Shown: piece after piece, positions 81-15,771 of the stretch | Position numbering within the stretch: the first letter of the stretch is position 1 | Layout of the letters: each line of letters starts with the position of its first letter | Source of the DNA: a gamma proteobacterium symbiont of Ctena orbiculata | GTDB lineage: Bacteria; Pseudomonadota; Gammaproteobacteria; Chromatiales; Chromatiaceae | Direction of reading: 5' to 3' | NCBI GenBank assembly: GCA_003058495.1 | Contig: QBVC01000012.1 | Location: forward strand, 1-64,000 | Length of the DNA stretch: 64,000 nt | Made by a program: the position numbers and the translations under genes | The notes under the pieces: model-generated | What the model was told of the DNA's origin: nothing | Database searches by the model: none | What the model saw: the letters and a program-made list of their open reading frames with translations, nothing else

Positions 81-140
81 ATGCCTATCTCCCTTCAGAG
101 GTTAATGATAGGCAGATACACAATCTAATTTACAGTCCCA
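1..140 (-). mobile_element. IS256-family insertion sequence, 5' end only
   Basis: This is the upstream end of an insertion sequence whose body lies left of the window. The transposase reading frame begins at 80. The element's terminus is placed near 140 because the disrupted helicase frame keeps a plausible sequence up to there and then turns into GGGACTGTAAATTAGATTG on the minus strand, which resembles IS256-type termini (an A/T-rich stretch with TTGTGTA). The exact end and the target duplication cannot be fixed without the other end. Confidence 0.6.
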
Positions 141-368
141 TTGAGCAATCAATAGTCCTACTAACGTCTTTCCTGCGCCTGTGTTGAGAACAACACCTAT
201 ATCTGGTTTTGAACGAGAATCATGCCACTGTCTTAACGCATCACCCTGTGCTAGCCATAGATCGTTTATTCCTGGATCTGTAACCTTGAGTTTTTGGAAA
301 AGCTTAATAGGGTCAACAGCAAGTGCCCCTTTCCTTTTTGATCTTACTTTCGTGAAATCAAATGCCAT
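141..368 (-). pseudogene. DEAD/DEAH-box helicase, truncated by IS256 insertion
   Basis: About 76 N-terminal residues of an ATP-dependent helicase are left. The fragment begins MAFDFTKVRSKRKG and contains a clear Walker A motif (NTGAGKTLVG) at roughly residues 64-73, but no DEAD/DEAH box or later motifs. After GLLIAQ the frame enters the insertion sequence and stops at 102. The start at 368 is preferred over the ATG at 374 because GAGGG sits 7 bases before it. N-terminal segments of this kind ('tDP...W...R...D.vvLNTGaGKT') occur in helicases of defence islands. It lies downstream of hsdR with a 157-base gap and is very probably inactive. Confidence 0.7.
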
Positions 369-525
369 AATCATTCCCTCGTCAGCATAACTTTAATATA
401 ATAGCCAATGCTGAATTAGTTGTTCAAAATCATCCTTAGTGCCTAGTCTTGCAAAATAGTGGATTGTTATTCGGCTATCGATTCAGACTGTTTCTGTCAG
501 ATTAGAATTTTAATGCTGAGCATTA

Positions 526-3500
526 TCATTTCTGAGAATTTTCTGAGGTGAGCCCTGAAAAATTAGATCGCTTCAACATCTCGTAAAGCAACCCCAGAAA
601 AATTCCTCTAGCTCCTTCATCAGACAGCAGCCGTGTGGCCATTTTCTCGTGGGAAGTCATAGCTTCTACTATGGCCTCAATAGCAGCATCTGGGAGGTCG
701 GCCTTGAGTGCCTGCTCCTTAGTGTTGTTCAGTACCTGGGCCATCACTGTTTCGTTACCACGCAGTTTTTCGCTGATGTGGGTAGCGAACATCACTTTAT
801 CATCCTCGGTGATCTCTTCGCCGAACAGGTCGTTCAGTTTTTCAATCAGTTCAGAAAGGAAGGCACGCTCCCTGTCACGACCCTCGGCAGTACCAACACC
901 GGTTGCGGGTCGCAGTGACTTATATTCGCCAGTTTCTTCACCGATGCCTTGGAGTTGACCCTTGGATTTAATTCCGAAATGGGTCATCTGAAGACCCTTG
1001 AGGTCGATCTCTTCAGGATTGATGCCTTTTAGTCTATTGCGTAGCAGACGGGCATAGCCGGCAAAAGCCTCCAGGTCGGGGTCGCTGAACTCGATGAGTT
1101 GGGAGATGTATTCGTACATGCGCACGAATTTGGTGAGTCCTTCCTTGAACTTGAGCAGGCTGTCGCGCTCCTTGGCTTGTTCGGCGCGGTTCAGATCGGC
1201 TTGCTGTTTGCCCTGTTCATCTCCTGCCTCATGGCAGCGTTGAAACTCCCGTTCCCAGCGCTCGATTGCTTCGTTGAGGGATTTCAGGCGTGAGTTGAAG
1301 CGCTCCGTGGCTGGGTCGGTGATCGACAACAGCTTAGCCTGGCGCGGCTCCTGTCGGGTTACCTCTTCGCCGAACTGGCGAATTTCTTCGGGGCGGTAGA
1401 TGAACATCTGGTCTAGATGCTCCTTGATGTCATAGACAATATTGGGGTCCTGGACATCTTCAATGCTGGCATCCCGGTAGAAGAGGCGGAAGGCGTCGAG
1501 GATCTCTTGGGGCTCGTTGACGAAGTCGATGACGTAGGTTCGGTCCTTGCCCGCATAGGTCCGGTTGAGGCGAGAGAGAGTCTGCACCGCATCGACCCCG
1601 GAGATCTTCTTGTCCAGGTACATGGCCACCAGCTTGGGTTGGTCGAAACCGGTCTGGAACTTGTTGGCCACCAGCATCACCCGATACTGTTGGGTATCGA
1701 ACACCTTACGCAGATCCTGTCCCTTTACATCGGGGTTGAGGTTGTTCTCGTCGAACTCCTCGCCTTCCAGTGCCGGGTCTACATCGGCGCCGGGCACCTT
1801 GCCTGAAAAGGCGACCAGGGCATGGATGCCTTCAATGCTGTGATCTTTCATATAGCGGTCGAAAGCGAGCTTGTATTTCACCGCCGACGCGCGGGAGGAG
1901 GTGACCACCATCGCCTTGGCCTGGCCATTGAGCAAATGGGCGACAGTGGTGCGGAAGTGTTCGATGATGAACTCCACCTTCTGGGTAACGTTGGTGGGGT
2001 GCAGGCTCAGCCAACGGGCCAGGGATCGCTTGGCCTGCTTGCTGTCTACCCGCTCGTCGTCCTCCACCGCCTGGCCCAGGCGGAAGGCGGTCTTGTAAGC
2101 GGTGTAGTTCTGCAAAACATCGAGGATAAAGCCTTCCTCAATCGCCTGCTGCATGGTGTAGATATGGAATGGCTTGGGGGGATTGTCCTTACTCACTGGC
2201 TGGGTCGGGTCAGCCGGCCGGCCGAACAGGGTCAGGGTTGAGTGCTTGGGAGTGGCGGTAAAGGCAAAGTAGGAGACGTTAGGGGGAAACTTGCGTACTG
2301 CCTGTAACCGCTCCAGGATCTCCTCGGCGGTCATGCTCGCCATCTCCTCCTCCTTGTCCAGGGCCAGCACCGCTCGCAGCTTGCTGGCCGATGCGCCTGT
2401 CTGGGAGGTATGGGCCTCATCGATGATGACCGCGAAGCTGCGGTCCTTCAGCGAGGTCTCGGCGAGGATCGCCTCCATGGCGTAGGGGAAGGTCTGCAGG
2501 GTCACCACCACGATGGGGGTGTTGCTCAACAGGGCCTCGGCCAACTGCTGGCTCTTGGGCAGGGGGCTGGTCTCCCGGTCGATGGCCTTGACCACGCCGG
2601 TCTGGTGATCGATCTGCTGGATGGCGTCCTGCAACTGGGCGTCGAGCACCGTGCGATCGGTGATGACGATGACCGTGTCGAAATACTTCTCCCCCTCAGG
2701 TTGGCGCAGCCGGATCAGCTCGTGACAGGTCCAGGAGATGGAGTTGGTCTTGCCGGAACCGGCGCTGTGCTGAATCAGGTAGCGCTGCCCCGGTCCCTCT
2801 TCACGTACCGTGCCGATCAGGTTGGTCACCGACTCCCACTGATGGTGGCGGGGAAAGATCATGGTCTCCGCCCAGTAGGAGCGGCCATCGGCGTGCTGCT
2901 TCTCCTTGCGCTCCAAAAGCATGAAGCGGTGGAGAATACGCAGCCAGTTGTCCGGCGCCAGGATCTGCTCCCACCAGTAGGCTACCGAATACCTATCATC
3001 CTGGGCGGGCGGATTACCCGGCCTGCCGTCGTCACCCTGGTTGAAGGGCAGGAAGAAGGTCTTGGCCCCTGACAGCCGGGTGGTCATGAAGATCTCGGAG
3101 GTGGAGACGGCGAAGTGGACCAGGGCCCCGCGCTTGAAGGTGAGCAGGGGAAAGGTGAGCCCGGTTTGCTTATCCTTGGGTTGGCGGTCGGCGCGGTATT
3201 GGTGGATGGCCGAATTCACCGATTGGGTAAAGTCCGACTTCAGCTCCGCCGTGGCCACCGGGATGCCGTTGATGAAAAAGGCCAGGTCCAAGGCCCACTC
3301 CCGGTCCGGCGCATACTTGAGCTGGCGCACCACCCGCAGGCGGTTCTTGCGGTAGCGATCGATCACCCGCTCGTTGCGCGCGTCCTCCGGCAGGGATTGG
3401 CAGAGGGTCAGCTTGCCGCTACCGACGACATTGATGCCGCGACGAATCACCTCCAGAGTGCCTTGGGTTTCCAGGGCCTTCACCAATCGGTCGAGGACGA

Positions 3501-3699
3501 TCTTCTCGGTCGCCGCGCCGTTAAGCTTCTCCAGCTTGGCCCAGGCCTCCGGTTGGGCGGATTGGAGATAGCCGATGACATCTTCGGCGTAGAGCGCCCG
3601 TGGACGGTCGTAGCGGTCGGCTTCACCTACCAGCCAGCCGTGGTTGCCTAGGTAATCGACGATGAAGTCTTCGAAGTGGTATTCCTTGTGTGCGTCCAT
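526..3699 (-). CDS. hsdR: Type I restriction enzyme, R (endonuclease/translocase) subunit
   Basis: This is the motor and nuclease subunit of a type I restriction-modification complex (R2M2S), which translocates and cuts unmodified DNA. At 1057 residues it is full length. An N-terminal PD-(D/E)XK nuclease is visible (D138, then AELK with E152 and K154). It is followed by a superfamily 2 helicase with Walker A HSAGSGKT (about 311-318), DEAH (427-430) and TATPK (about 481-485), and by a C-terminal helical region that binds the methylase core. AAAGGA precedes the ATG by 8 bases. Only 11 bases separate it from hsdS, so the two are co-transcribed. All key motifs are intact. Confidence 0.95.
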   Translation of the reverse strand: MDAHKEYHFEDFIVDYLGNHGWLVGEADRYDRPRALYAEDVIGYLQSAQPEAWAKLEKLNGAATEKIVLDRLVKALETQGTLEVIRRGINVVGSGKLTLCQSLPEDARNERVIDRYRKNRLRVVRQLKYAPDREWALDLAFFINGIPVATAELKSDFTQSVNSAIHQYRADRQPKDKQTGLTFPLLTFKRGALVHFAVSTSEIFMTTRLSGAKTFFLPFNQGDDGRPGNPPAQDDRYSVAYWWEQILAPDNWLRILHRFMLLERKEKQHADGRSYWAETMIFPRHHQWESVTNLIGTVREEGPGQRYLIQHSAGSGKTNSISWTCHELIRLRQPEGEKYFDTVIVITDRTVLDAQLQDAIQQIDHQTGVVKAIDRETSPLPKSQQLAEALLSNTPIVVVTLQTFPYAMEAILAETSLKDRSFAVIIDEAHTSQTGASASKLRAVLALDKEEEMASMTAEEILERLQAVRKFPPNVSYFAFTATPKHSTLTLFGRPADPTQPVSKDNPPKPFHIYTMQQAIEEGFILDVLQNYTAYKTAFRLGQAVEDDERVDSKQAKRSLARWLSLHPTNVTQKVEFIIEHFRTTVAHLLNGQAKAMVVTSSRASAVKYKLAFDRYMKDHSIEGIHALVAFSGKVPGADVDPALEGEEFDENNLNPDVKGQDLRKVFDTQQYRVMLVANKFQTGFDQPKLVAMYLDKKISGVDAVQTLSRLNRTYAGKDRTYVIDFVNEPQEILDAFRLFYRDASIEDVQDPNIVYDIKEHLDQMFIYRPEEIRQFGEEVTRQEPRQAKLLSITDPATERFNSRLKSLNEAIERWEREFQRCHEAGDEQGKQQADLNRAEQAKERDSLLKFKEGLTKFVRMYEYISQLIEFSDPDLEAFAGYARLLRNRLKGINPEEIDLKGLQMTHFGIKSKGQLQGIGEETGEYKSLRPATGVGTAEGRDRERAFLSELIEKLNDLFGEEITEDDKVMFATHISEKLRGNETVMAQVLNNTKEQALKADLPDAAIEAIVEAMTSHEKMATRLLSDEGARGIFLGLLYEMLKRSNFSGLTSENSQK

Positions 3700-3710: not shown

Positions 3711-5003
3711 TTAGGCGAGGTTTCGGACGTCGATTTGGCCGGTAACGGCGGCGGTGATGAGGGTAGAGCGGTACTCTTGTAGTAATTCGATACTTTTTTC
3801 TGCTCCGCGAATTATTTTAAAAACATTTGCCAGGAAGTTATCCAAGTACTTACGTATCAAAAGCCTTTCTTCAAAGGGCGGGCAAGCAAAACATATATTC
3901 TCGATGCTTTCTGGCGAGATATTTGGCTGGTTTGTAGCAGTCAGGCTGTTTTCAAAAGCTGAAACAAAAGGCGTTGACCGGGCCACATACGACAAGTACT
4001 CATTCTCAAAATTGCATGTCGGAGGGATAAAGCCAACTCTTTGGTTAACTAAGCATGCCTCTTCACGATCAAGAATCGCCACTTTCACACCGCCACTAAT
4101 GATTGGTCGAGTCATCGCAAACACCAAGGCCCCTGATGGTGCAATAAACTCTTTGTGCTCAGTTAGATAGGTCACCGGTAAAAACGACGAGTCAGACCAA
4201 TCGAAATGGAGATGACTAACATTTGTTATTTTAATTACAGGGACACCCTCATCAGTGAAATCAGTACTCTTAAACGCATACCCACCAATTACTTTCCCAT
4301 AATGCTTTACTCTTTTGATATCCCAATGCTCCGGCACCTCCCCCAACCACTCAACGCCGGAGTCCTTCATCGGCACATTAGGATCGAGGCCCTTGGTCAC
4401 CGCCTGGGTAATCACCGCCTGCCGCTTCTCCTTGAGCAGCTCGATCAGGTGCTGCTTCTTCTCGATCAGCGCGTCGATGCGGGTGGTTTCGCGGTCGAGG
4501 AAGGTGGAGATGGCCTGTTGTTCATTAAGCGAGGGTATGGGAATATTGATGGACTTCATGTCCGAATACTTTGTACTCCATAGGTCATCAACAATACCCT
4601 TACCAAAACGATAGAACTCCTCCTGAAACCACTTACTTCTAAGTAGATGGTGGATATATGCTCCATCTAGACCGTTTGGCTTAAGTACAATACTGATTAG
4701 CGATACTGACCCGTCCAACGTCGATAATCCTGATGAACCTTTGCGGTCTGACCGACTGTTGATAACGAAGTCGCCTTTACAGACTTTTTTACGATTGTCC
4801 CCGGCATCTGTCTTCGCTGCAGTCTCCAATTGAGGAACAATCCCATTCATTGTCACAGAAAGTGGCGGATAGTCCTTATCACTGACTTTTTCATTTCTTT
4901 CTGAAAAGAACTGACCTAATCGAACGTATTGCCAGGACTTCGGTATCGAAGGAAGCCATTTGCTATATGTGTCTTGATAAGTTGAATATTTATTGTATTC
5001 CAT
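3711..5003 (-). CDS. hsdS: Type I restriction enzyme, S (specificity) subunit
   Basis: The protein recognises the bipartite DNA target for both methylation and restriction. Its 430 residues show the usual layout. Target-recognition domain 1 covers about 1-165, and a conserved helical spacer follows (LNEQQAISTFLDRETTRIDA through LIELLKEKRQAVI, about 160-200). A linker ending in PEHW leads to target-recognition domain 2 (about 225-375), and a second conserved helix region ends in LITAAVTGQIDV. The recognition domains are more AT-rich than their neighbours, as is common for exchanged modules. It starts 9 bases after the nuclease gene, has no strong ribosome binding site and is likely translationally coupled. 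The sequence recognised cannot be predicted by eye. Confidence 0.93.
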   Translation of the reverse strand: MEYNKYSTYQDTYSKWLPSIPKSWQYVRLGQFFSERNEKVSDKDYPPLSVTMNGIVPQLETAAKTDAGDNRKKVCKGDFVINSRSDRKGSSGLSTLDGSVSLISIVLKPNGLDGAYIHHLLRSKWFQEEFYRFGKGIVDDLWSTKYSDMKSINIPIPSLNEQQAISTFLDRETTRIDALIEKKQHLIELLKEKRQAVITQAVTKGLDPNVPMKDSGVEWLGEVPEHWDIKRVKHYGKVIGGYAFKSTDFTDEGVPVIKITNVSHLHFDWSDSSFLPVTYLTEHKEFIAPSGALVFAMTRPIISGGVKVAILDREEACLVNQRVGFIPPTCNFENEYLSYVARSTPFVSAFENSLTATNQPNISPESIENICFACPPFEERLLIRKYLDNFLANVFKIIRGAEKSIELLQEYRSTLITAAVTGQIDVRNLA

Positions 5004-5012
5004 ACTATATTT

Positions 5013-5915
5013 CTACGCAGATTCGTAGCTTTTAAGGAAGAGTGACTTTGCCTTCTCAAGCTCTTCGCTATTACGAATCTTGATCTCCAGCTCCCCGGTG
5101 CCATAGTGGCCTATATTACGCACGTCGCGAGTGAAACCCTTTTCCAAGGTGATGCTATCCGGATTTACATTGATATAGCAGGTGATGCACCCTTTGTTAG
5201 GATGGGGTTCCAGGCAAGTGAAGTTCTTGATGCGCTTGAAGGCGACATAGTGCTTGAGGGTCTTTACCTGAATATCGTCGCCAAGTGCCAGCAGGTAAGC
5301 GCGTAACTCTTCATATAGATCGGCAAGCGATCCTGTCAGTTCCTCGACAGTCTGGCTGACGGTTTTGGTCAGAACGGTTGTTCCGCCCTCGGTGACTACT
5401 GTGGGTGCTGCACTGATAGCATTGACTAGCTCCAGTAGAAGCAGCTCGTCACCAAAACGGCGGTAGCGCATCAGCTCAATATTGCGGTTGATCTGCTGCA
5501 CGGCGTGCTCGTCATATCGGGTATAGCCACCCGCAATGCACAGCAGACGCGGTGCGGACCAGTCGATGGCGTCGGCCGCCTCCTGCCCCAGTTGTTTCAT
5601 TACCATCAGCTCGAACTCCGCCCTGTGGTCGAGCAGCCAGTCGAGATAGTAGAGCCCCTGGTTGATGACGTTCTCGTTGGTGGTGCGCTTGTACTCGATG
5701 ATGACCGGGTTGCCGTTCTCATCCAGCCCCAGGGTGTCGATACGTCCCCCGTGCTTGGGGCCGGTGCTGTATTCGCTGGCGAGGAAGCGGATGCCCAGCA
5801 GGGTCTCCAGGTTCTGTTCCATCTGGGTCTGTAGGGACTTCTCCAGCGCCACGGCGGTGCCTGGGATTTCCTCAGCCTGTTGGCCACTCATGCGGAAGAG
5901 TTTGATGTCGCTCAT
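5013..5915 (-). CDS. PD-(D/E)XK nuclease-like protein with DUF5655 C-terminal domain
   Basis: A 300-residue protein embedded between abi and hsdS. The N-terminal half carries a nuclease core: GGRIDTLGLDENGNPVIIEYKR-type spacing gives D60, E74 and K76, the classic D...ExK triad. The C-terminal 90 residues (AFKRIKNFTCLEP ... TRDVRNIGHYGTGELEI) match the DUF5655 pattern found in many predicted nucleases. The start at 5915 has AGGAG five bases upstream and overlaps the abi stop in an ATGA. An in-frame ATG at 5930 has no better signal. Its role is unknown: it may be an accessory nuclease of the restriction system or a partner of Abi. Confidence 0.8.
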   Translation of the reverse strand: MSDIKLFRMSGQQAEEIPGTAVALEKSLQTQMEQNLETLLGIRFLASEYSTGPKHGGRIDTLGLDENGNPVIIEYKRTTNENVINQGLYYLDWLLDHRAEFELMVMKQLGQEAADAIDWSAPRLLCIAGGYTRYDEHAVQQINRNIELMRYRRFGDELLLLELVNAISAAPTVVTEGGTTVLTKTVSQTVEELTGSLADLYEELRAYLLALGDDIQVKTLKHYVAFKRIKNFTCLEPHPNKGCITCYINVNPDSITLEKGFTRDVRNIGHYGTGELEIKIRNSEELEKAKSLFLKSYESA

Positions 5916-6847
5916 GGGGTCTCCTGCCATACAGGCGCCCAGATCGATCGGTCGGCAAAATCTTCGGGAAAGCCCATATGCCGGGTTCTGATGCCATGGT
6001 GTTCTATCAAGGCTTTAAGGCGGTGCTTCCATCGATTACCGGGGCTGATCAGGTCCATTAGATAGGCTAGCATGACCAGTGTGTTATAGATTCGGCGTGG
6101 TGCCTGGTTCGGGTCTGGTCCGAAATCGAAACACCCGGTCAGCTCTGGTGGTTTGGTGCGCGGCAGTTGCATGGTTAATGTTAACTCACTGTTCCACAGG
6201 CGGCCATGATGGGCGCAGAGGTTTCGAATCACTGTGAGGTGGTGCAGAAATGAAGTCAGTACGCCTTCGTCCAGGCCATAGACTTTGGCGATTTTTGCCT
6301 TGGTAGATATGTGCTTCAGATTGGATAGCCAATGGGAGAACTGACCGAGTGTCATGATTCCCACGATGGCCCAGATGGGTGGCAGGTCAGGCTCTTTGTA
6401 TTTCTTTTTATAGTGGCGTATGTAGCGCTCTTTACTTCGTTCAAACTCGCTGGCGATTTCAGCCAGACTGCGGCCATATTGGCGATGGCCTTGGAACAGA
6501 CCTGACTTTAGGTAGGCATGGGGACCATCACTATGGGCGAGCACATCGACCCATTGGTTACGAATTGAAATCTCAATCCGTTCGATCGCATCGTTGATGA
6601 GGAGTCGCAGTTCCCGATCGAAGGTGTAGAGGTTCAGTACCTGGTCGAATGTGGTTCCCGGCTTAAATAGGTGTTGGCCATTGGATGATGGGTCGGCCTC
6701 GAAGGGCATCCAATAACCGCGAAGTCGATAGTAGCCGATATGCGTGAGATAAAAGCGGGTTGTATCGGGATCGGGGATTTCCATACCCCGGGTTGATAGT
6801 TGGTCGAGCTGTTGCTCAATGGTGGTCGGCGTCTTTTCGAACTTCAT
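5912..6847 (-). CDS. Abi_2/AbiF-type abortive infection protein (HEPN)
   Basis: A 311-residue member of the AbiD/AbiF (Abi_2) family, whose members block phage growth and are thought to be HEPN ribonucleases. Family hallmarks are visible: IGYYRLRGYW near residue 37, YTFDRELRLLINDAIERIEI near 74-93, and RNLCAHHGRLWN at 208-219, which supplies the HEPN R-x4-H motif (R208, H213). Its upstream region holds a promoter and a structured RNA with a terminator-like end, so its expression may depend on read-through. The stop overlaps the next gene's ATG by four bases. Its precise target is not visible. Confidence 0.9.
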   Translation of the reverse strand: MKFEKTPTTIEQQLDQLSTRGMEIPDPDTTRFYLTHIGYYRLRGYWMPFEADPSSNGQHLFKPGTTFDQVLNLYTFDRELRLLINDAIERIEISIRNQWVDVLAHSDGPHAYLKSGLFQGHRQYGRSLAEIASEFERSKERYIRHYKKKYKEPDLPPIWAIVGIMTLGQFSHWLSNLKHISTKAKIAKVYGLDEGVLTSFLHHLTVIRNLCAHHGRLWNSELTLTMQLPRTKPPELTGCFDFGPDPNQAPRRIYNTLVMLAYLMDLISPGNRWKHRLKALIEHHGIRTRHMGFPEDFADRSIWAPVWQETP

Positions 6848-6858
6848 GCCGGCCCCGG

Positions 6859-6919
6859 AAAAAAGTAACCCGCCGGTTTGAGGGTACTCCGAAGAGCATA
6901 GCCTTGGCGGGTGTTGTTG
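6859..6919 (-). ncRNA. Candidate structured RNA upstream of abi (abiF-RNA-like)
   Basis: On the minus strand an outer 7-bp stem pairs ACCCGCC (6912-6906) with GGCGGGT (6874-6868). Inside it a hairpin TGCTC-TTCG-GAGTA carries a classic C(UUCG)G tetraloop, with single-stranded flanks AAGGC and CCCTCAAACC. The outer stem is followed by TTAC and six T (6864-6859), so the RNA ends like a rho-independent terminator. A sigma70-type promoter ends 6 bases upstream. An 'abiF RNA' motif located upstream of abiF-type genes is known from comparative genomics, and position and shape agree. The covariance match itself is not tested here. Confidence 0.65.
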
Positions 6920-6925
6920 ATTTTA

Positions 6926-6954
6926 ATGGTAAGCAAACTTACCCATGGCGTCAA
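6926..6954 (-). promoter_or_regulatory. Sigma70-type promoter for the abi RNA/operon
   Basis: On the minus strand TTGACG (6954-6949, 5 of 6) is followed after 17 bases by TACCAT (6931-6926, 4 of 6). The predicted start falls near 6919, just at the first base of the structured RNA. It lies downstream of the hsdM stop and can drive RNA, abi, nuclease, hsdS and hsdR. Confidence 0.6.
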
Positions 6955-7038
6955 GTGGACTTTACAAATCAAGGTAGTGTCAGCAAAATGAGCCATTAAT
7001 ATAATCCTTTGTTTTATAATGATAATTCCATAACTAAA

Positions 7039-8994
7039 CTATGTAGTCACCTCACCCAGAAGCGACATGATTTCCTGCTCCACCTGCTTCAGCTCGGCGT
7101 CGATCTCGGCCAGGGGGCGGGGTGGCTGGTATTTGTAGAAGTAGCGGTTGAAGTTAATTTCATAGCCGACGATGCCGACCTCGCCGTCCTTTTCATCCCG
7201 CTTGCCAGTGTCAATCCAGGCGTCGGGTACATGGGGGGTAACCTCACGGGCAAAGTAAGTCTCTATGTCTTCGTTTAGGGGGACATTTTCGTTGTCGCGT
7301 AGGTCTGGGTTGGGATCAATGGCGCCCTTGGTCATGCAGACCTCGGCTTCAGGATCGTGCTCGCTGAGGTGCTTTTGCAGGATCTTCTTCTCGGGTGCGC
7401 TGAGCTTGCTGCTGAGTTGTTTGTTGACTGCCATGAAGAAGTCACTTCGCGAGGGATGTTTCTTCTTTCTCATGTTGGCTAAAATTGCCAGTATCTCTTC
7501 TTGGCGCTCTCCACTGAGTTTGCTCCACCCCTTATCTGCCTGAAGCGCGTCGCGGCGCAACTTGTCCTTCGGATAGAAGGCAAGCTGCAGGGGGCGTTCG
7601 ACGGTGATGCGCCGATAGCCGAAGTCGGTAGTGGCGAAGATCTTTGAGGTCTCGGTTTTTTTGAAGGCATCGCGCTTACGTTCGATGTCTGCGATCTGTT
7701 TGTCTGTGATATAGCGGCGTTTGCTGCCGAGGCTCTTGCGCATGGAGGTCCACTGGCTGGTGGCGTCGATCAGCTGCACCTTGCCTTTGCGGCGCTTCTC
7801 CTTGTGGTTGCTGAGAACCCAGATGTAGGTGGCAATGCCGGTGTTGTAGAAGAGATCGGTGGGCAGCGCGACGATCGCTTCCAGCCAGTCGTTCTCCAGA
7901 ATCCAGCGACGGATCTCGGATTCACCGGAACCAGCCCCACCAGTGAAGAGGGGAGAGCCGTTGAGGACGATGCCGATACGGGTGCCGCCTCCGTTGTCGC
8001 TACGTTTGGAGAGCAGGTGCATGAGGAACAGCAGGGAGCCGTCGGAAACCCTCGGCAGGCCGGGGCCGAAACGGCCGTCATGCCCTTTGTAACGGTGTTC
8101 GTCGGAGACGGCCTTCTGGACCTTCTTCCAATCTACGCCGAAGGGCGGATTGGCGAGGCAGTAGTTGAACTGCTCGAAGGGCAGTTGGTCATCACTCAGG
8201 GTGTTACCGAAATGGAGATTCTTGGGGTCGTACCCTTTGACCATCATATCTGCCATGGCGATGGCAAAGGACTCCGGGTTGAGTTCCTGGCCGAAAGGGA
8301 CGATGCGTGCCTTGTTGGTCCATTCGTGAACCTGCTCGATGCCGGAGGCGAGGAATCCGCCTGTGCCGCAGCAGGGGTCGTATATGGTGCGCACCACACC
8401 TTCTCCAGTTAGTACCTCCTGATCAGGGGCAAAGATCAGGGTGGTAGCCAGGCGCACAACGTCGCGGGGGGTGAAGTATTCACCTGCGGTATCGTTTGCA
8501 CTCTCGGCAAAGCGCCGGATCAGCTCTTCGAAGACCAGGCCCATTTCATGGTTCGAGATGGCCTGGGGGTGGAGGTCGATTCCGGCGAACTTCTGCACCA
8601 CTAAGTAGAGCAGGTTGGCATCGACCAGTCGGTCGAGCCAGATGGGGAAGTTGAAATAGTCGAAGATCTGGCGGGTGTTTTCGCTGAATTTGGAGAGGTA
8701 GTCCTCTAGATTTGCCCGGGTCTCGGTTTCGCCTAGATTGGATAGTTGGTATTTAGAAGTGTTGTAGTAGCGATGGCCTGAAACTTTCGGCAGAACGGTG
8801 TCGAGCTCAATACTGGAGTCCTTCAGTTTGGTGTGGCGTTTGAGCACGGCTTCCCGGGTGGGTTCCAATACACACTCAAGACGCCTTAATAAGGTAAACG
8901 GCAGGATTACCCTGCCAAATTCGGATCGCTTGAAATCGCCGCGCAGAAGGTCGGCCACCGACCAGATGAAGCCGGCAAGGTTCTGCTGATTCAA
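7039..8994 (-). CDS. hsdM: Type I restriction enzyme, M (adenine-N6 methyltransferase) subunit
   Basis: S-adenosylmethionine-dependent N6-adenine methylase that protects host DNA and forms the M2S core with HsdS. It has 651 residues. The N-terminal helical domain ([35 protein letters not shown]) precedes the catalytic domain, with AdoMet motif [11 protein letters not shown] (206-215) and catalytic NPPF (282-285). The start is TTG at 8994 with GGGAG seven bases upstream. A 191-base gap containing the promoter-RNA module separates it from abi, and hsdS lies two genes further on. That separation of M from S is unusual. Confidence 0.95.
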
Positions 8995-9701
8995 ACCTTA
9001 TCTCCCATAAACTAGATTCGATTGCCTGATTAGGGTCTAAAGTGAAAAGTCAGTTATTATGCCCATAAATTCAATAAGATACAGAAGGAAAGGTAGAATG
9101 TCCATGTGGCCCGGAAATCAGTTTGGGTATAGTGGGTGTGTGTTATACACAGATCCTTCAATAGATGGGTGTTCTACTCAGTTAGTGACCAGATCTTGTT
9201 GATGAACCGACCGATATGTTTGACGAAAAAACCTATGTCAGGTCTATCAAGCGGGTTTCCAAGGTCTATTCAGACTTGACATAAAGTAGGCACGTATTCC
9301 ACTTGTCTGTATAACTGTAGTTCCAAGTTTTCACCTTGTATTGAAGAACTCTATCCTGTCTCTAAATGGATCACCATCGCTTGGTTGAGTAGATCTGGTA
9401 TTGTGTGGATCTGATAATTGGTCATTTGCAGCACGCTACTGGACGAAACCTGTTTGTAACATTCTAACAACAACTAATGAGAGCCTTTGGGATTGACCAA
9501 AAGGTATAGACCACCACCATCAAAAAGCTTATATGCCATCTCTTTTGGGTTTGGCGTTTCTAACTACTGTGTCTGTAAGAACCATTCTCCCACCATTGGG
9601 GTATAGTCCCCTTGAGGGAGGAGGGGTACCTCGAGAACTACCCCCGGAATGGCCAGGGTGTGGGTGTATGTTATTGAACCTTGCTTGACACGGTATATTA
9701 G
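8995..9701. other. Non-coding stretch between hsdM and ssrA
   Basis: I find no convincing gene in about 700 bases. Composition is more AT-rich than the core genes. The only clear structure is the folded element at 9593-9652, described separately. It is the junction between the island and the conserved ssrA locus, so it may hold decayed integrase or attachment remnants, none of which I can recognise. Confidence 0.5.
9593..9652. other. Multi-stem inverted-repeat element
   Basis: CCATTGGGGTA (9593-9603) pairs with TACCCC plus AATGG (9639-9652, three-base bulge CGG), making an 11-bp outer stem. Inside, CCCC (9608-9611) can pair with GGGG (9623-9626). No T-run follows on either strand, so it is not a simple terminator. 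It may be a structured RNA, a mobile-element end or a protein site. Confidence 0.4.
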
Positions 9702-9726
9702 AAAAAAGCCCGTTTTATGCGGGCTT
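9702..9726 (-). terminator. Rho-independent terminator of ssrA
   Basis: On the minus strand AAGCCCG (9726-9720) pairs with CGGGCTT (9712-9706) around a 7-base loop, followed by a T-run to 9702. It lies 34 bases beyond the tmRNA 3' end. Confidence 0.9.
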
Positions 9727-9759
9727 ATGGATGATATTGGACTTGATTGGATGGTGATT

Positions 9760-10913: not shown

Positions 10914-12314
10914 ATGGCTGAAAGACAATCGATCCATGGTCAATGGTCCTCGAGGCTGATATTCATTCTTGCCGCCACCGGTTCGGCCGTGGGTCTGGGT
11001 AATGTCTGGAAGTTTCCCTATATAACCGGGGAGAACGGCGGCGGCGCCTTCGTCCTCTTCTATCTGCTCTGCATCGCCATTGTCGGACTCCCCATCATGA
11101 TGGCGGAGATCATGCTTGGGCGGCGGGGCAGGCAGAGCCCGATCAACACCATGACCACACTCAGCGAGGAAGAGGGGGCCAACAGGCAGTGGTCCCTGGT
11201 CGGTTGGAGCGGCGTCCTCGCCGGTTTTCTGATTCTCTCCTACTACAGTGTCATCGCGGGATGGGCGCTGGCCTATGTGGTCAGGGCGGCGGGCGGTGAG
11301 TTCAGCGGTGTGGACGCGGGGGGTATTCAATCCCTGTTCAACGGTTTGGTGGGGGACCCCGAGCGGCTGTTGGCCTGGCATACCATGTTCATGCTGATGA
11401 CCATGTTCGTGGTCGCCAAAGGGGTCAAGGCCGGCCTGGAGCGGGCGGTGACCTATCTCATGCCCGCGCTCTTCATCCTCTTGGTCGTGCTGGTCGGCTA
11501 TGCGATGAATACGGGCTTTTTCGCCCAGGGCATCGAATTTCTGTTCACCCCCGATTTCTATAAATTGGTGCACAGCTGTGAAGTGGTGGACGGCCTGGAA
11601 CAGTGCGAGGTGAGCGGCACGCCACTACTGGTCGCCATGGGGCATGCCTTCTTTACCCTCAGCCTGGGGATGGGTGCGATCATGGTGTATGGCTCCTATA
11701 TGCCGAAAAAGTCCTCGATTGCGGGCTCCGCCATTTTGATCGCCCTGCTCGATACCCTGGTGGCCCTGGTCGCCGGGATGGCGATATTCCCGATTGTCTT
11801 CGCCAACGGCCTTGAACCGGGCGCCGGTCCAGGCCTGATCTTTCAGACCCTGCCCATCGCCTTTGGCGCCATGCCGGGTGGCCAGTTTTTCGGCACCCTC
11901 TTCTTTGTCCTGCTCGTCTTCGCCGCCTGGAGCTCGGCGATCTCCCTGATAGAGCCCGCGGTGGCATGGCTGGTGGAAAATCGCAATATGACCCGGGTCA
12001 GGGCAGCGGTCTGGCTGGGGGCGATAACCTGGCTTTTGGGCCTCGGCTCGGTCTTCTCATTCAATATCTGGTCAGAGGTCAAGATCTTCGAGAAGACGTT
12101 CTTTGATCTGCTCGATTACCTGACTGCCAATATCATGCTGCCGTTGGGCGGTCTGCTGATCGCCATATTCAGCGGCTGGCTGATGAAGACGGCGTCCAGC
12201 AAGGATGAGTTCGCGATGCGTCCGGTCGGCTACCGGATCTGGTGGAATCTTATTCGATACATCTCACCGCTTGCGGTGATCGTGGTATTTCTGAATGCGA
12301 TAGGAATAATTTAG
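10914..12314 (+). CDS. Sodium-dependent transporter, NSS/SNF family
   Basis: Inner-membrane LeuT-fold symporter of 466 residues, probably carrying an amino acid or similar small solute with sodium. The family signature GSAVGLGNVWKFPYITGENG lies in the first membrane segment, followed by about eleven further hydrophobic segments. The start at 10914 is chosen over an in-frame upstream start because AAGGCGGG precedes it by five bases and MAERQSIHGQWSSR is the usual family N-terminus. The stop is directly followed by the ratA start. The substrate cannot be told from sequence. Confidence 0.9.
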   Translation: MAERQSIHGQWSSRLIFILAATGSAVGLGNVWKFPYITGENGGGAFVLFYLLCIAIVGLPIMMAEIMLGRRGRQSPINTMTTLSEEEGANRQWSLVGWSGVLAGFLILSYYSVIAGWALAYVVRAAGGEFSGVDAGGIQSLFNGLVGDPERLLAWHTMFMLMTMFVVAKGVKAGLERAVTYLMPALFILLVVLVGYAMNTGFFAQGIEFLFTPDFYKLVHSCEVVDGLEQCEVSGTPLLVAMGHAFFTLSLGMGAIMVYGSYMPKKSSIAGSAILIALLDTLVALVAGMAIFPIVFANGLEPGAGPGLIFQTLPIAFGAMPGGQFFGTLFFVLLVFAAWSSAISLIEPAVAWLVENRNMTRVRAAVWLGAITWLLGLGSVFSFNIWSEVKIFEKTFFDLLDYLTANIMLPLGGLLIAIFSGWLMKTASSKDEFAMRPVGYRIWWNLIRYISPLAVIVVFLNAIGII

Positions 12315-13665: not shown

Positions 13666-14085
13666 ATGGATAACCAGGATATACGCAAAGCGGGACTCAA
13701 GGTCACCCACCCCAGGATCAAGATCCTGGAGTTGCTTGAGAACAGCAGTCAACGCCATGTCAGTGCTGAAGATGTCTATAAGATGCTCCTCGATAACGGG
13801 GAGGAGATCGGTCTTGCCACCGTGTACAGGGTATTGACCCAGTTTGAGACCGCGGGTTTGGTCACGCGTCACAATTTCGAGGGGGGGCATGCGGTTTTCG
13901 AACTGGACCGGGGAGGCCATCATGACCATATGGTCTGCGTGGTTTGCGGTAAGGTGGAGGAGTTCATCGATCCCACGATCGAGAAGCGTCAGCGGGAGAT
14001 CGCCAAGTCCCACGGTTTTGAAATGGTGGACCATTCACTGATTATCTATGGTCACTGCAGCAATCCCAAGTGCAGTGTGGGATGA
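13666..14085 (+). CDS. fur: Ferric uptake regulator Fur
   Basis: Iron-responsive repressor of 139 residues. The winged helix covers roughly 1-80 (LKVTHPRIKILELLE, GLATVYRVLTQFETAGLV). The metal-binding region contains HHDHMVCVVCGK with C91 and C94, and a second pair C131/C136 near the C-terminus. It is divergent from bamE and converges on recN, with only 9 bases between the stop codons. Confidence 0.97.
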   Translation: MDNQDIRKAGLKVTHPRIKILELLENSSQRHVSAEDVYKMLLDNGEEIGLATVYRVLTQFETAGLVTRHNFEGGHAVFELDRGGHHDHMVCVVCGKVEEFIDPTIEKRQREIAKSHGFEMVDHSLIIYGHCSNPKCSVG

Positions 14086-14094
14086 GAATTTACC

Positions 14095-15771
14095 CTAGTT
14101 CGGGCTCGATGCGAGGTTGATCATCTCCTCGGCATGGGCCAGGGTCTGTTCGGTGATCCGGACGCCTCCGAGCATCCGCGCTATCTCCTGAATCCGCTCC
14201 TCCTGCTGCAACTCGGCGATTGCTGTCCAGGTCCTCTTCTTCTCGGTTGTTTTCTGCACCTGGAAGTGGTGCATCGCCTGGGATGCGACCTGGGGCAGAT
14301 GGGTGACACAGAGTATTTGCCGGTTTCCGGCGAGGGTACGCAGCATCTGGCCGACGATCTCGGCAACACCGCCGCCGATGCCCACGTCCACCTCGTCGAA
14401 AACCAGGGTGGGGGTCGAGCCGCAGCGAATGGTCGCAACCTGGATGGCAAGGCTGATGCGCGACAGCTCGCCGCCGGAGGCGACCTTGCTCAAGGGTTGC
14501 AACGGCATGCCCGGGTTGGCCGACACCATGAATTCCACCTGTTCCAATCCGTTTGCCCCGGCCCGTGTCTCCTCGAGCCTATGCAGCGAGACGCTGAAAC
14601 GCCCCCCCGGCATGCCGAGCTTGCCCATGGCCCCGGTGATTTCGCTGTCCAGACGCTGCGCGGCATCCTGGCGTTTACCGCTTAGCTTTCCCGCCGATTC
14701 CAGATAGGCGCTGCGCCGTTGATCCACCAGGCGGGTCAACTCATCCAACTCGAGATCACTGTTTTGCAGCAGCTTAAGCTCCTCTTCGAATTCGGTTTGT
14801 TTATCCGCCAGCTGTTCAGGTTTGACGCGGTATTTGCGGGCAGTTTCGTGTATCGCACTCAATCGCTCTTCCACCTGCTGCAGGCCTGCCGAGTCGAGTT
14901 CCATCCCGTTGAGGTAGTCACGCAGATGCGCCAGGGTTTCATCCACCTGTATCAGGGCGCCATCGAGCATCTGCTGAGGCTGGTTGAGCCTGCCATCCAG
15001 TTCTGCCGCCTCGTTGAGGCGATCCACATAACTCGAGAGGCGGCTGCGCAGCGCCAGCTGCTCCTCATCCAGACCATTGATCACGCTGCTGCAGGTATCG
15101 GCCAACTGCTCCTGGTGGCTGAGACGCCGCTGTTCCTGCCCCAGGCTGGTCCATTCATCGGCGGTGATATTCAAACCCTGTAATTCGTTGACCTGGAAGC
15201 TCAGCAGGTCCAGGCGGGAGGCCCGATCCGCGGCGGAGGCGGTGAGGCTCTCGAGCCGTGACTTATCGTTCCGATAGAGCCGGTAGTCCTCTTTAACCTG
15301 TTTCGCAAGATCCTGAACACCCCCGTAGGCATCCAGCAGATCGCGCTGGTGTCCGCTTTTGAGCAGCGACTGGTGGGCGTGCTGGCCGTGTATCTCCACC
15401 AGGTGGCCGCCCAGCTCCTGCAGCTGCTGCAGGGGAACCGCGCGGCCGTTGATAAAGGCCTTGGAGCGGCCTTGCTGGGAGAGGCTGCGGCGCAGGATGC
15501 ACTCATCCGCTTCATCCAGCTCCTGTTGCCGCAGCCAGTCGGTCGCTGCCGGGAGGCCTCTCAAGTCGAACACGGCGGTGACCTCGGCGCGATCGCTCTC
15601 TGCTCTGATCATGCTGTTGTCCGCGCGATCGCCGAGGGCCAGTCCCAGGGCATCGATCAAGATCGATTTTCCCGCGCCGGTTTCACCCGTCAGCGCGGTC
15701 AGGCCATCCAGCAGTTCGAGTTCCAGGCTGGAGACTATGGCCAGATTGCGGATCTGTATCTCGGTCAGCAT
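14095..15771 (-). CDS. recN: DNA repair protein RecN
   Basis: SMC-like ATPase acting in double-strand break repair, 558 residues. Walker A GETGAGKSILIDAL lies at 29-42, long coiled-coil segments fill the middle, and the C-terminal half has the ABC signature region (SKVASGGELSRISLAI) and Walker B LVFDEVDVGIGG. The start overlaps the end of nadK by 7 bases, the common nadK-recN pairing. RecN is usually under LexA control, but no clear SOS box is visible because the promoter is probably upstream of nadK. Confidence 0.97.
   Translation of the reverse strand: MLTEIQIRNLAIVSSLELELLDGLTALTGETGAGKSILIDALGLALGDRADNSMIRAESDRAEVTAVFDLRGLPAATDWLRQQELDEADECILRRSLSQQGRSKAFINGRAVPLQQLQELGGHLVEIHGQHAHQSLLKSGHQRDLLDAYGGVQDLAKQVKEDYRLYRNDKSRLESLTASAADRASRLDLLSFQVNELQGLNITADEWTSLGQEQRRLSHQEQLADTCSSVINGLDEEQLALRSRLSSYVDRLNEAAELDGRLNQPQQMLDGALIQVDETLAHLRDYLNGMELDSAGLQQVEERLSAIHETARKYRVKPEQLADKQTEFEEELKLLQNSDLELDELTRLVDQRRSAYLESAGKLSGKRQDAAQRLDSEITGAMGKLGMPGGRFSVSLHRLEETRAGANGLEQVEFMVSANPGMPLQPLSKVASGGELSRISLAIQVATIRCGSTPTLVFDEVDVGIGGGVAEIVGQMLRTLAGNRQILCVTHLPQVASQAMHHFQVQKTTEKKRTWTAIAELQQEERIQEIARMLGGVRITEQTLAHAEEMINLASSPN

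What the first reader, a model, noticed from the sequence alone, without database searches (positions are those of the whole stretch)
5013..8994. Type I restriction locus split by a promoter-RNA-Abi-nuclease cassette
hsdM is separated from hsdS by a promoter, a structured RNA, an Abi_2 HEPN gene and a DUF5655 nuclease. abi and the nuclease overlap (ATGA), and gaps to hsdS and hsdR are 9 and 11 bases, so RNA, abi, nuclease, hsdS and hsdR form one unit. Restriction, abortive infection and a nuclease therefore look co-regulated. One idea is that Abi is a back-up triggered when restriction fails; that is inference.
Basis: partly seen in the sequence, partly recalled or inferred. Interest (0 to 1): 0.8.

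Follow-up and report, generated by a model that had tools for sequence, protein, structure and literature searches.

The report
RNA-guarded toxin inside restriction operon
A bacterial DNA-restriction operon carries, between two of its own genes, a compact RNA-guarded toxin unit of a known kind plus a likely DNA-cutting enzyme; such toxin units sit inside restriction operons of many other bacteria too, so this is a clear example of a known trend rather than a new kind of defence.

Summary
In detail: on the minus strand hsdM, 191 bp, abi, DUF5655 gene, hsdS, hsdR, with the ATGA overlap and 9- and 11-base gaps. The "structured RNA" is an abiF RNA (Rfam RF03085, E 0.0027, below the curated cut-off), about 60 nt, with its own promoter-like site and a U-run. 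The Abi protein is an AbiF homologue (PDB 8vz6, E 3.7e-50). So the insert is an AbiF RNA-antitoxin/HEPN-toxin cassette, followed by PADLOC candidate PDC-S18, a NucS-like PD-(D/E)XK protein. The full order is not unique: two other genomes of the family, one from another genus, have it. Among near relatives of this AbiF, 20 of 67 assessable loci have it between hsdM and hsdS and 6 between hsdS and hsdR; 33 show no hsd gene. The RNA precedes abi in 84 of 88 loci with or without hsd, so it belongs to abi, not to restriction. AbiF "embedded in R-M operons" was listed in 2013. What I did not find in print is the promoter-RNA-U-run anatomy inside the hsd operon and a lean towards the M|S slot. Abi as a back-up to restriction is plausible (PrrC precedent) but untested; an autonomous cassette fits better.

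The parts
7039..8994 (-). hsdM, methyltransferase subunit of the type I R-M system (TTG start)
   Evidence: HsdM_N 2.8e-25 and N6_Mtase 7.9e-57; PADLOC MTase_I 2.3e-272
6926..6954 (-). promoter-like site TTGACG-17-TACCAT of the RNA/abi cassette
   Evidence: 9 of 12 consensus bases, 7 nt before the RNA; sites of at least 9 of 12 at this place in 33 of 66 loci, shuffled mean 1.9, maximum 7; not tested in the cell
6859..6918 (-). abiF-type RNA, likely RNA antitoxin: outer stem 6912-6906 with 6874-6868, inner helix, U-run 6864-6859
   Evidence: Rfam RF03085 29.2 bits, E 0.0027, below gathering score 37; alignment of 66 with compensatory changes; fold z -2.96
5912..6847 (-). abi, AbiF/Abi_2 HEPN protein, likely RNase toxin (RNLCAH motif)
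   Evidence: PF07751 3.9e-58, PADLOC AbiD 4.4e-73, PDB 8vz6 E 3.7e-50, R208 N209 H213 invariant in six proteins
5013..5915 (-). NucS_C-like PD-(D/E)XK + DUF5655 protein, PADLOC candidate PDC-S18; start overlaps the abi stop (ATGA)
   Evidence: PDC-S18 6.2e-148, DUF5655 6.6e-10, model matches EndoMS/NucS, D60 E74 K76 conserved
3711..5003 (-). hsdS, specificity subunit
   Evidence: Methylase_S 2e-18, two stretches
526..3699 (-). hsdR, restriction subunit
   Evidence: HSDR_N 2.2e-13, SWI2_SNF2 1e-23; HsdR subfamily model 8.3e-49, below its cut-off

Best explanation
A type I restriction-modification operon carries two embedded defence modules. The first is a self-contained AbiF toxin-antitoxin cassette between hsdM and hsdS. 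Its own promoter makes a ~60-nt structured RNA whose stem and U-run end much of the transcription (inferred). The RNA binds and silences AbiF (shown by others for relatives, inferred here), and read-through makes AbiF. When a phage shuts off or degrades host RNA, the RNA is lost before the toxin, the AbiF HEPN RNase is freed, and growth and phage production stop (inferred from type III toxin-antitoxin systems). The second module is the PDC-S18 nuclease, translationally coupled to abi, which probably cuts DNA (inferred). hsdS and hsdR lie downstream and share the read-through transcript, so expression is partly shared, but the modules most likely act in parallel as layered defence, not as one machine.
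For: AbiF homology to 8vz6, named in PMC12737573 as the PbAbiF-ncRNA structure (passage). RNA: Rfam match; abiF RNA in 5 of 8 further loci, 2 above the gathering score; RNA before abi in 84 of 88 loci; covariation; L225 and L255, not used to build the model, score 69.5 and 73.1 bits. Promoter-like site at a fixed place. Same layout as RCd22-abiF of C. difficile, where the RNA neutralises the toxin (PMC12373285, abstract and sections 6 and 7). RNA travels with abi rather than with hsd. Other toxin and defence genes use the same slot. Nuclease fold and residues.
Against: The Rfam hit is under the gathering score and the whole gap does not fold unusually. abi and hsd distances correlate weakly but above chance (r 0.32 with hsdM, p 0.013; 0.46 with hsdR, p 0.0006), so the cassette is not wholly independent. 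In this family M, abi, DUF5655 and R stay together while hsdS is exchanged, which allows a functional tie. Neither toxicity, RNA binding nor transcript ends were tested. The sequence evidence does not tell parallel action from a trigger.
Confidence: 0.6

Rival explanations
1. PrrC-like guard: AbiF is kept silent while the type I enzyme works and is released when a phage anti-restriction protein disables it.
For: PrrC is a HEPN nuclease embedded in a type I operon, held by the type I enzyme and released by T4 Stp (PMC3710099 and PMC3874165, passages). AbiF lies inside hsd operons in 26 of 67 assessable loci (20 M|S, 6 S|R).
Against: 33 of 67 assessable loci show no hsd gene within reach; the RNA present in 84 of 88 loci supplies a control of its own; AbiF lacks the ATPase part of PrrC (single Abi_2 match); abi and hsdM distances correlate far less (0.32) than hsdM and hsdR (0.89).
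Confidence: 0.15
2. Chance cargo: the junction between hsdM and hsdS is merely a tolerated insertion site, and neither expression nor function is linked.
For: In 10 of 37 hsdM-anchored loci at least 500 bp lie between hsdM and hsdS, with Fic (2), RhuM, PIN, SIR2, GmrSD, YhcG, PRTase-CE or abi genes (the tenth, L235, judged RhuM-like by eye). The M|S state changes at least 12 times on the abi tree.
Against: The cargo identified is made of toxin or defence families; all hsd genes found were on the strand of abi; the abi-DUF5655 junction is kept in L248 at 73-78% protein identity; M|S is clustered on the abi tree (12 changes against 20.4 in shuffles, 0 of 1000 as low).
Confidence: 0.13
3. Operon switch: the RNA's stem and U-run act mainly as an attenuator of hsdS and hsdR, and the toxin adjusts its strength.
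For: The RNA and U-run lie before hsdS and hsdR in 20 M|S loci plus the window, L014, L017, L225 and L248. AbiF leans to M|S (20 to 6) where other inserts lean to S|R (9 to 17), Fisher p 0.005, uncorrected for relatedness.
Against: U-runs in M|S cassettes (19) do not differ from those without hsd (29), p 0.49; the RNA is equally present without hsd genes.
Confidence: 0.1

Closest known systems
AbiF-RNA toxin-antitoxin units (RCd22/AbiFCd, PMC12373285; PbAbiF, PDB 8vz6 as named in PMC12737573)
   Same: Promoter, abiF RNA with U-run, then the Abi_2 HEPN gene
   Different: One abiF motif here against two in RCd22, where the terminator is a separate hairpin; here the unit sits inside an hsd operon, not in a prophage lysis module
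Abi2/AbiF/AbiD proteins embedded in R-M operons (PMC3710099, Table 1, passage)
   Same: Same protein group, embedded in R-M operons
   Different: The passages seen do not mention an RNA, a slot or a second nuclease
PDC-S18 (PADLOC-DB), from the guilt-by-embedding candidates
   Same: PADLOC model matches over the whole protein, 6.2e-148
   Different: Here it follows AbiF between hsdM and hsdS; in the plasmids viewed it follows hsdS. The original preprint was not seen
EcoprrI-PrrC and RRDM (DarTG2) type I operons with embedded toxins (PMC3874165, PMC12255303, passages)
   Same: Toxin gene inside a type I operon as a possible second layer
   Different: Other toxin families; PrrC is held by the type I enzyme; DarTG2 lies between hsdS and hsdR and has a protein antitoxin
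TgvAB in the V. cholerae VPI-2 type I operon (PMC11411939, passages)
   Same: Two embedded genes that add a second defence
   Different: TgvAB is a GmrSD-like type IV restriction system; [quoted passage not shown]

Membership tests
AbiF (Abi_2) HEPN toxin | Abi_2 domain and homology to a proven AbiF | tested here: met
   PF07751 3.9e-58; 8vz6 E 3.7e-50 over residues 3-303
AbiF (Abi_2) HEPN toxin | Rx4-6H HEPN motif | tested here: met
   RNLCAH; R208, N209, H213 invariant in six proteins; motif as given in PMC3710099
AbiF (Abi_2) HEPN toxin | Toxicity and RNase activity | not testable with these tools
   needs the bench
abiF RNA (Rfam RF03085) | Score at or above the gathering score | tested here: not met
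   29.2 bits against 37; L005, L006 and L048 pass it
abiF RNA (Rfam RF03085) | Consensus stem and position before an Abi_2 gene | tested here: met
   full-length alignment to the model; covariation with related RNAs; 11 bases between U-run and abi start
Type III toxin-antitoxin system | RNA antitoxin gene with promoter and terminator before the toxin gene | tested here: inconclusive
   promoter-like site and U-run seen; the terminator scan does not list the stem (its loop limit is 3-8)
Type III toxin-antitoxin system | RNA neutralises the toxin by direct binding | not testable with these tools
   shown by others for RCd22 (PMC12373285 abstract)
PDC-S18 | Match to the PADLOC model | tested here: met
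   6.2e-148, residues 1-299
PDC-S18 | Antiphage activity | not testable with these tools
Type I restriction-modification system | hsdM, hsdS and hsdR present and open | tested here: met
   three full open frames
EcoprrI-PrrC type | HEPN nuclease with ABC-ATPase domain in the hsd operon | tested here: not met
   embedded HEPN protein, but only an Abi_2 match and no ATPase
EcoprrI-PrrC type | Silenced by the type I enzyme and released by anti-restriction | not testable with these tools
   needs the bench

The most novel reading that the evidence does not exclude
The AbiF cassette is selected for the hsdM|hsdS slot because its promoter, RNA and U-run form a switch inside the operon: one RNA both silences the toxin and throttles hsdS and hsdR, so that loss of the RNA during infection at once frees the toxin and raises restriction.
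Probability: 0.12. Interest if true: 0.75.

Novelty: new member of a known kind. Interest (0 to 1): 0.42.

Why it matters
It turns a short remark in the literature (AbiF genes are embedded in R-M operons) into an anatomy: promoter, RNA and U-run travel with the toxin into the hsdM-hsdS junction in several bacterial groups, with a second nuclease beside it in this family. That makes it directly testable whether an RNA antitoxin couples abortive infection to restriction.

Tried and rejected
RNA as a regulator native to hsd: not supported; of 46 hsdM-anchored and 15 DUF5655-anchored regions, model R1 hits only L225 (has abi) and weakly L213. The 46 leave out G020 and G024, which one search also matched but which were already held through abi (L014, L017, both with the RNA). 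The whole 191-nt gap as a structured RNA: no better than shuffles. Embedded cassettes with weaker U-runs: no difference. Island integrated at tmRNA with a duplicated 3' end: only the tmRNA itself matches exactly, plus one 3-mismatch match on another contig, so no support; the far end of the island may lie off the contig. The abi+DUF5655 pair outside the family: among the 80 genome-contig loci DUF5655-like hits occur only in L087 and L101, in other contexts, and none of the 15 DUF5655 regions shows abi; of 41 plasmid records with DUF5655 only two were viewed, both without abi in the stretch shown.

Rows dropped and limits: one search gave 10 of 93 genomes (own included) and 13 match rows; 8 further loci were studied, L009 and L010 (short or broken matches) were left out, and L011/L013 and L008/L012 are pieces of one gene each. 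Of these 8, five lie by hsd genes and three are too short to tell. In one search, 13 of 80 genome-contig loci were set aside as short. L063 and L064 are identical, L069 near-identical, and L062, L071 and L072 are close; the counts 20 and 6 are not corrected for this. One search also gives p 0.0009 for 24 to 6 (window, L014, L017, L225 added) and 0.0001 for 22 to 3 (a thinning that I chose by hand). The other inserts in that test are gaps of at least 500 bp, not all checked as genes. The hsd profiles were seeded from the window proteins, so distant hsd families may be missed. The covariation rows were found through complementarity of the outer stem, so the outer stem's full pairing is partly built in; the inner helix was not chosen for. 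The distance test used 15 of the M|S loci; L014 and L064 were left out as near-copies and loci without long enough hsdM and hsdR were dropped. The shuffles keep base content only. Papers: searches; in their listings and in the passages viewed I found no description of the RNA inside an hsd operon, but most subscription papers and the guilt-by-embedding preprint are not held.
Full report
What is there. On the minus strand: hsdM (8994-7039), 191 bases, abi (6847-5912), a DUF5655 gene (5915-5013), hsdS (5003-3711), hsdR (3699-526). Profile searches confirm each gene. tmRNA lies upstream at 10125-9760. The window begins at the start of its contig, so what lies beyond hsdR is cut.

The RNA. Rfam abiF RNA (RF03085) matches 6911-6868 with 29.2 bits, under the gathering score of 37, E 0.0027. 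The family is also found ending 20-31 bases before the abi match in 5 of 8 loci of relatives, two of them above the gathering score. In 88 loci of AbiF relatives (8 from relatives; 80 from genome contigs) the motif lies before abi in 84: 76 by the stem search and 8 more by model R1 (one of them, L050, cut by the contig end); it was not found in L019, L020, L021 and L120. It is present in 20 of 20 M|S and 6 of 6 S|R loci and in 32 of 33 without hsd. 66 distinct rows, the window included, were aligned. Seven of ten pairs show changes on both sides; 98.8% of cells pair, against 82.9% in shuffles and 29-52% when the partner is slid. Rows were found through complementarity of the outer stem, so only the inner helix (columns 15-17 with 45-47; 34, 0 and 20 double changes) is free of that choice. 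L225 and L255, not used in the model, score 69.5 and 73.1 bits; a wide Rfam search did not list these two at E 0.1. The whole gap does not fold unusually, the 60-nt element does.

Promoter and U-run. A sigma-70-like pair ends 7 nt before the RNA's AACAA in the window; pairs with at least 9 of 12 bases occur at that place in 33 of 66 loci, shuffled mean 1.9 and maximum 7. The stem is followed by UACUUUUUU. This is the layout of RCd22-abiF in C. difficile, where the short form predominates and the terminator limits read-through (PMC12373285; abstract, sections 6 and 7, passages).

The protein. The nearest solved structure is 8vz6, an Abi family protein, E 3.7e-50; PMC12737573 names 8VZ6 as the PbAbiF-ncRNA structure (passage). 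RNLCAH fits the Rx4-6H motif (as given in PMC3710099), with R, N and H invariant in six proteins.

The nuclease. The DUF5655 protein is PADLOC PDC-S18. Its model (mean pLDDT 83, pTM 0.53) matches EndoMS/NucS (E 1e-4 to 8e-4) and more weakly Shedu; D60 is invariant and E74 and K76 are kept in at least 9 of 10 homologues. An hsd match of some kind occurs in 9 of 15 DUF5655 regions, and in four of these (L142, L152, L153, L156) the gene lies directly beside hsdS. Of five more regions two (L248, L249) are inside hsd operons and three show no hsd gene. Plasmids of Cupriavidus oxalaticus (M-S-DUF5655-R) and Staphylococcus nepalensis (R-S-M-S-DUF5655) are named examples; an Acetobacter vaccinii plasmid has M-S-two genes-Abi-R with the RNA.

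Is the order unique? No. L014 (same genus) has hsdM-RNA-abi-extra ORF-DUF5655-hsdS-hsdR; the extra ORF has no Pfam match. L248 (same family, other genus) has hsdM-RNA-abi-DUF5655-hsdS-hsdR, its hsdM interrupted by about 2.5 kb with an ORF that looks to me like an IS21-type transposase (recalled, by eye). Identity to the window: L014 hsdM 85, abi 93, DUF5655 95, hsdS 37, hsdR 97; L248 hsdM 86 and 70 in two pieces, abi 73, DUF5655 78, hsdS 37 over part of it, hsdR 83. abi and DUF5655 meet at the same base in L248 as in the window. So in this family the set stays together while hsdS is exchanged. It is rare: abi in 10 of 93 relatives and DUF5655 in 5 of 116 family genomes, the window's own genome counted in both; G020, which has DUF5655, is not among the five and was presumably not drawn.

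How common is AbiF in hsd operons? Of 80 genome-contig loci 67 could be judged: 20 between hsdM and hsdS, 6 between hsdS and hsdR, 8 near other hsd genes, 33 with none found. The M|S loci include alpha-, beta- and gammaproteobacteria and MAGs labelled Desulfuromonadales and Nitrospinota (titles). All hsd genes found were on the strand of abi. Starting instead from hsdM, 46 regions were fetched; 37 show M and S, 10 of them with at least 500 bp between, one being abi (L225). With L014 and L017, held already, abi is in 3 of 39. Other inserts with a Pfam match are Fic (2), RhuM, PIN, SIR2, GmrSD, YhcG and PRTase-CE. Between S and R 17 of 31 have such a gap. AbiF thus leans to M|S (20 to 6) against other inserts (9 to 17), Fisher p 0.005, uncorrected for relatedness.

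History. On the abi tree (quick method, 90 rows) the M|S state needs 12 changes among 74 labelled rows, fewer than any of 1000 shuffles (mean 20.4) yet many: the link arose or was lost repeatedly. In 15 M|S loci abi distances correlate with hsdM at 0.32 (p 0.013) and hsdR at 0.46 (p 0.0006), hsdM with hsdR at 0.89. AbiF looks like cargo that changes operons now and then.

Reading. Best supported is a layered defence: restriction, an RNA-guarded RNase toxin and a nuclease in one operon. Shown: identities, RNA, order, recurrence. Inferred: RNA-toxin binding here, termination at the U-run, release of the toxin upon infection, DNA cutting. A PrrC-like trigger is possible without specific support. 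U-runs of M|S cassettes do not differ from those without hsd (p 0.49), which speaks against tuning of the operon by the RNA.

Known or new. Anantharaman et al. 2013 list Abi2/AbiF/AbiD as embedded in R-M operons (PMC3710099, passage). DarTG2 and TgvAB inside type I operons are published (passages). So this is a new member of a known kind. The RNA cassette inside hsd and the slot lean are what I did not find in print.

Noticed in passing
L213:2582-2634 (+): A weak abiF-like RNA (26.1 bits) lies between hsdM and a Fic gene in a locus without AbiF: perhaps a stranded RNA whose toxin was replaced.
   Followed up: partly
L078, from 4624 to the abi start: Two abiF-like motifs in a row before abi (seen by eye), as in RCd22 of C. 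difficile.
   Followed up: no
L083:9923-9978 and 11463-11518 (+): Two strong abiF-type RNAs about 1.5 kb apart, with a second abi match at 13898-14218.
   Followed up: no
window 8995-9759 and L014:5003-5865: Both hsd islands start less than 0.9 kb downstream of the 3' end of a tRNA-like gene, tmRNA in the window and tRNA-Pro in L014, which suggests mobile islands at different sites; no repeat of the tmRNA end was found.
   Followed up: partly
window 102-374 (-): The frame after hsdR matches the start of PADLOC candidate PDC-S28 (1.5e-28); it is 90 aa long and ends at a stop, close to the contig start.
   Followed up: no
L107:12186-13412 (+): The insert after hsdS there has NucS_C + DUF4268, the same plan as NucS_C + DUF5655 in the window.
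   Followed up: no
L248:4457-6985: hsdM interrupted by about 2.5 kb with an IS21-like ORF (by eye), while the RNA-abi-DUF5655-hsdS-hsdR part is kept.
   Followed up: partly
L014:5121-5385: Long inverted repeat (GGGCCTGTTAACACTAATCC at both ends) between tRNA-Pro and hsdM, like a MITE (by eye).
   Followed up: no
L016 and L116: L016, from a genome of the window's family, equals L116, titled Sedimenticola sp.; this suggests that the window comes from the Sedimenticolaceae (inference).
   Followed up: partly
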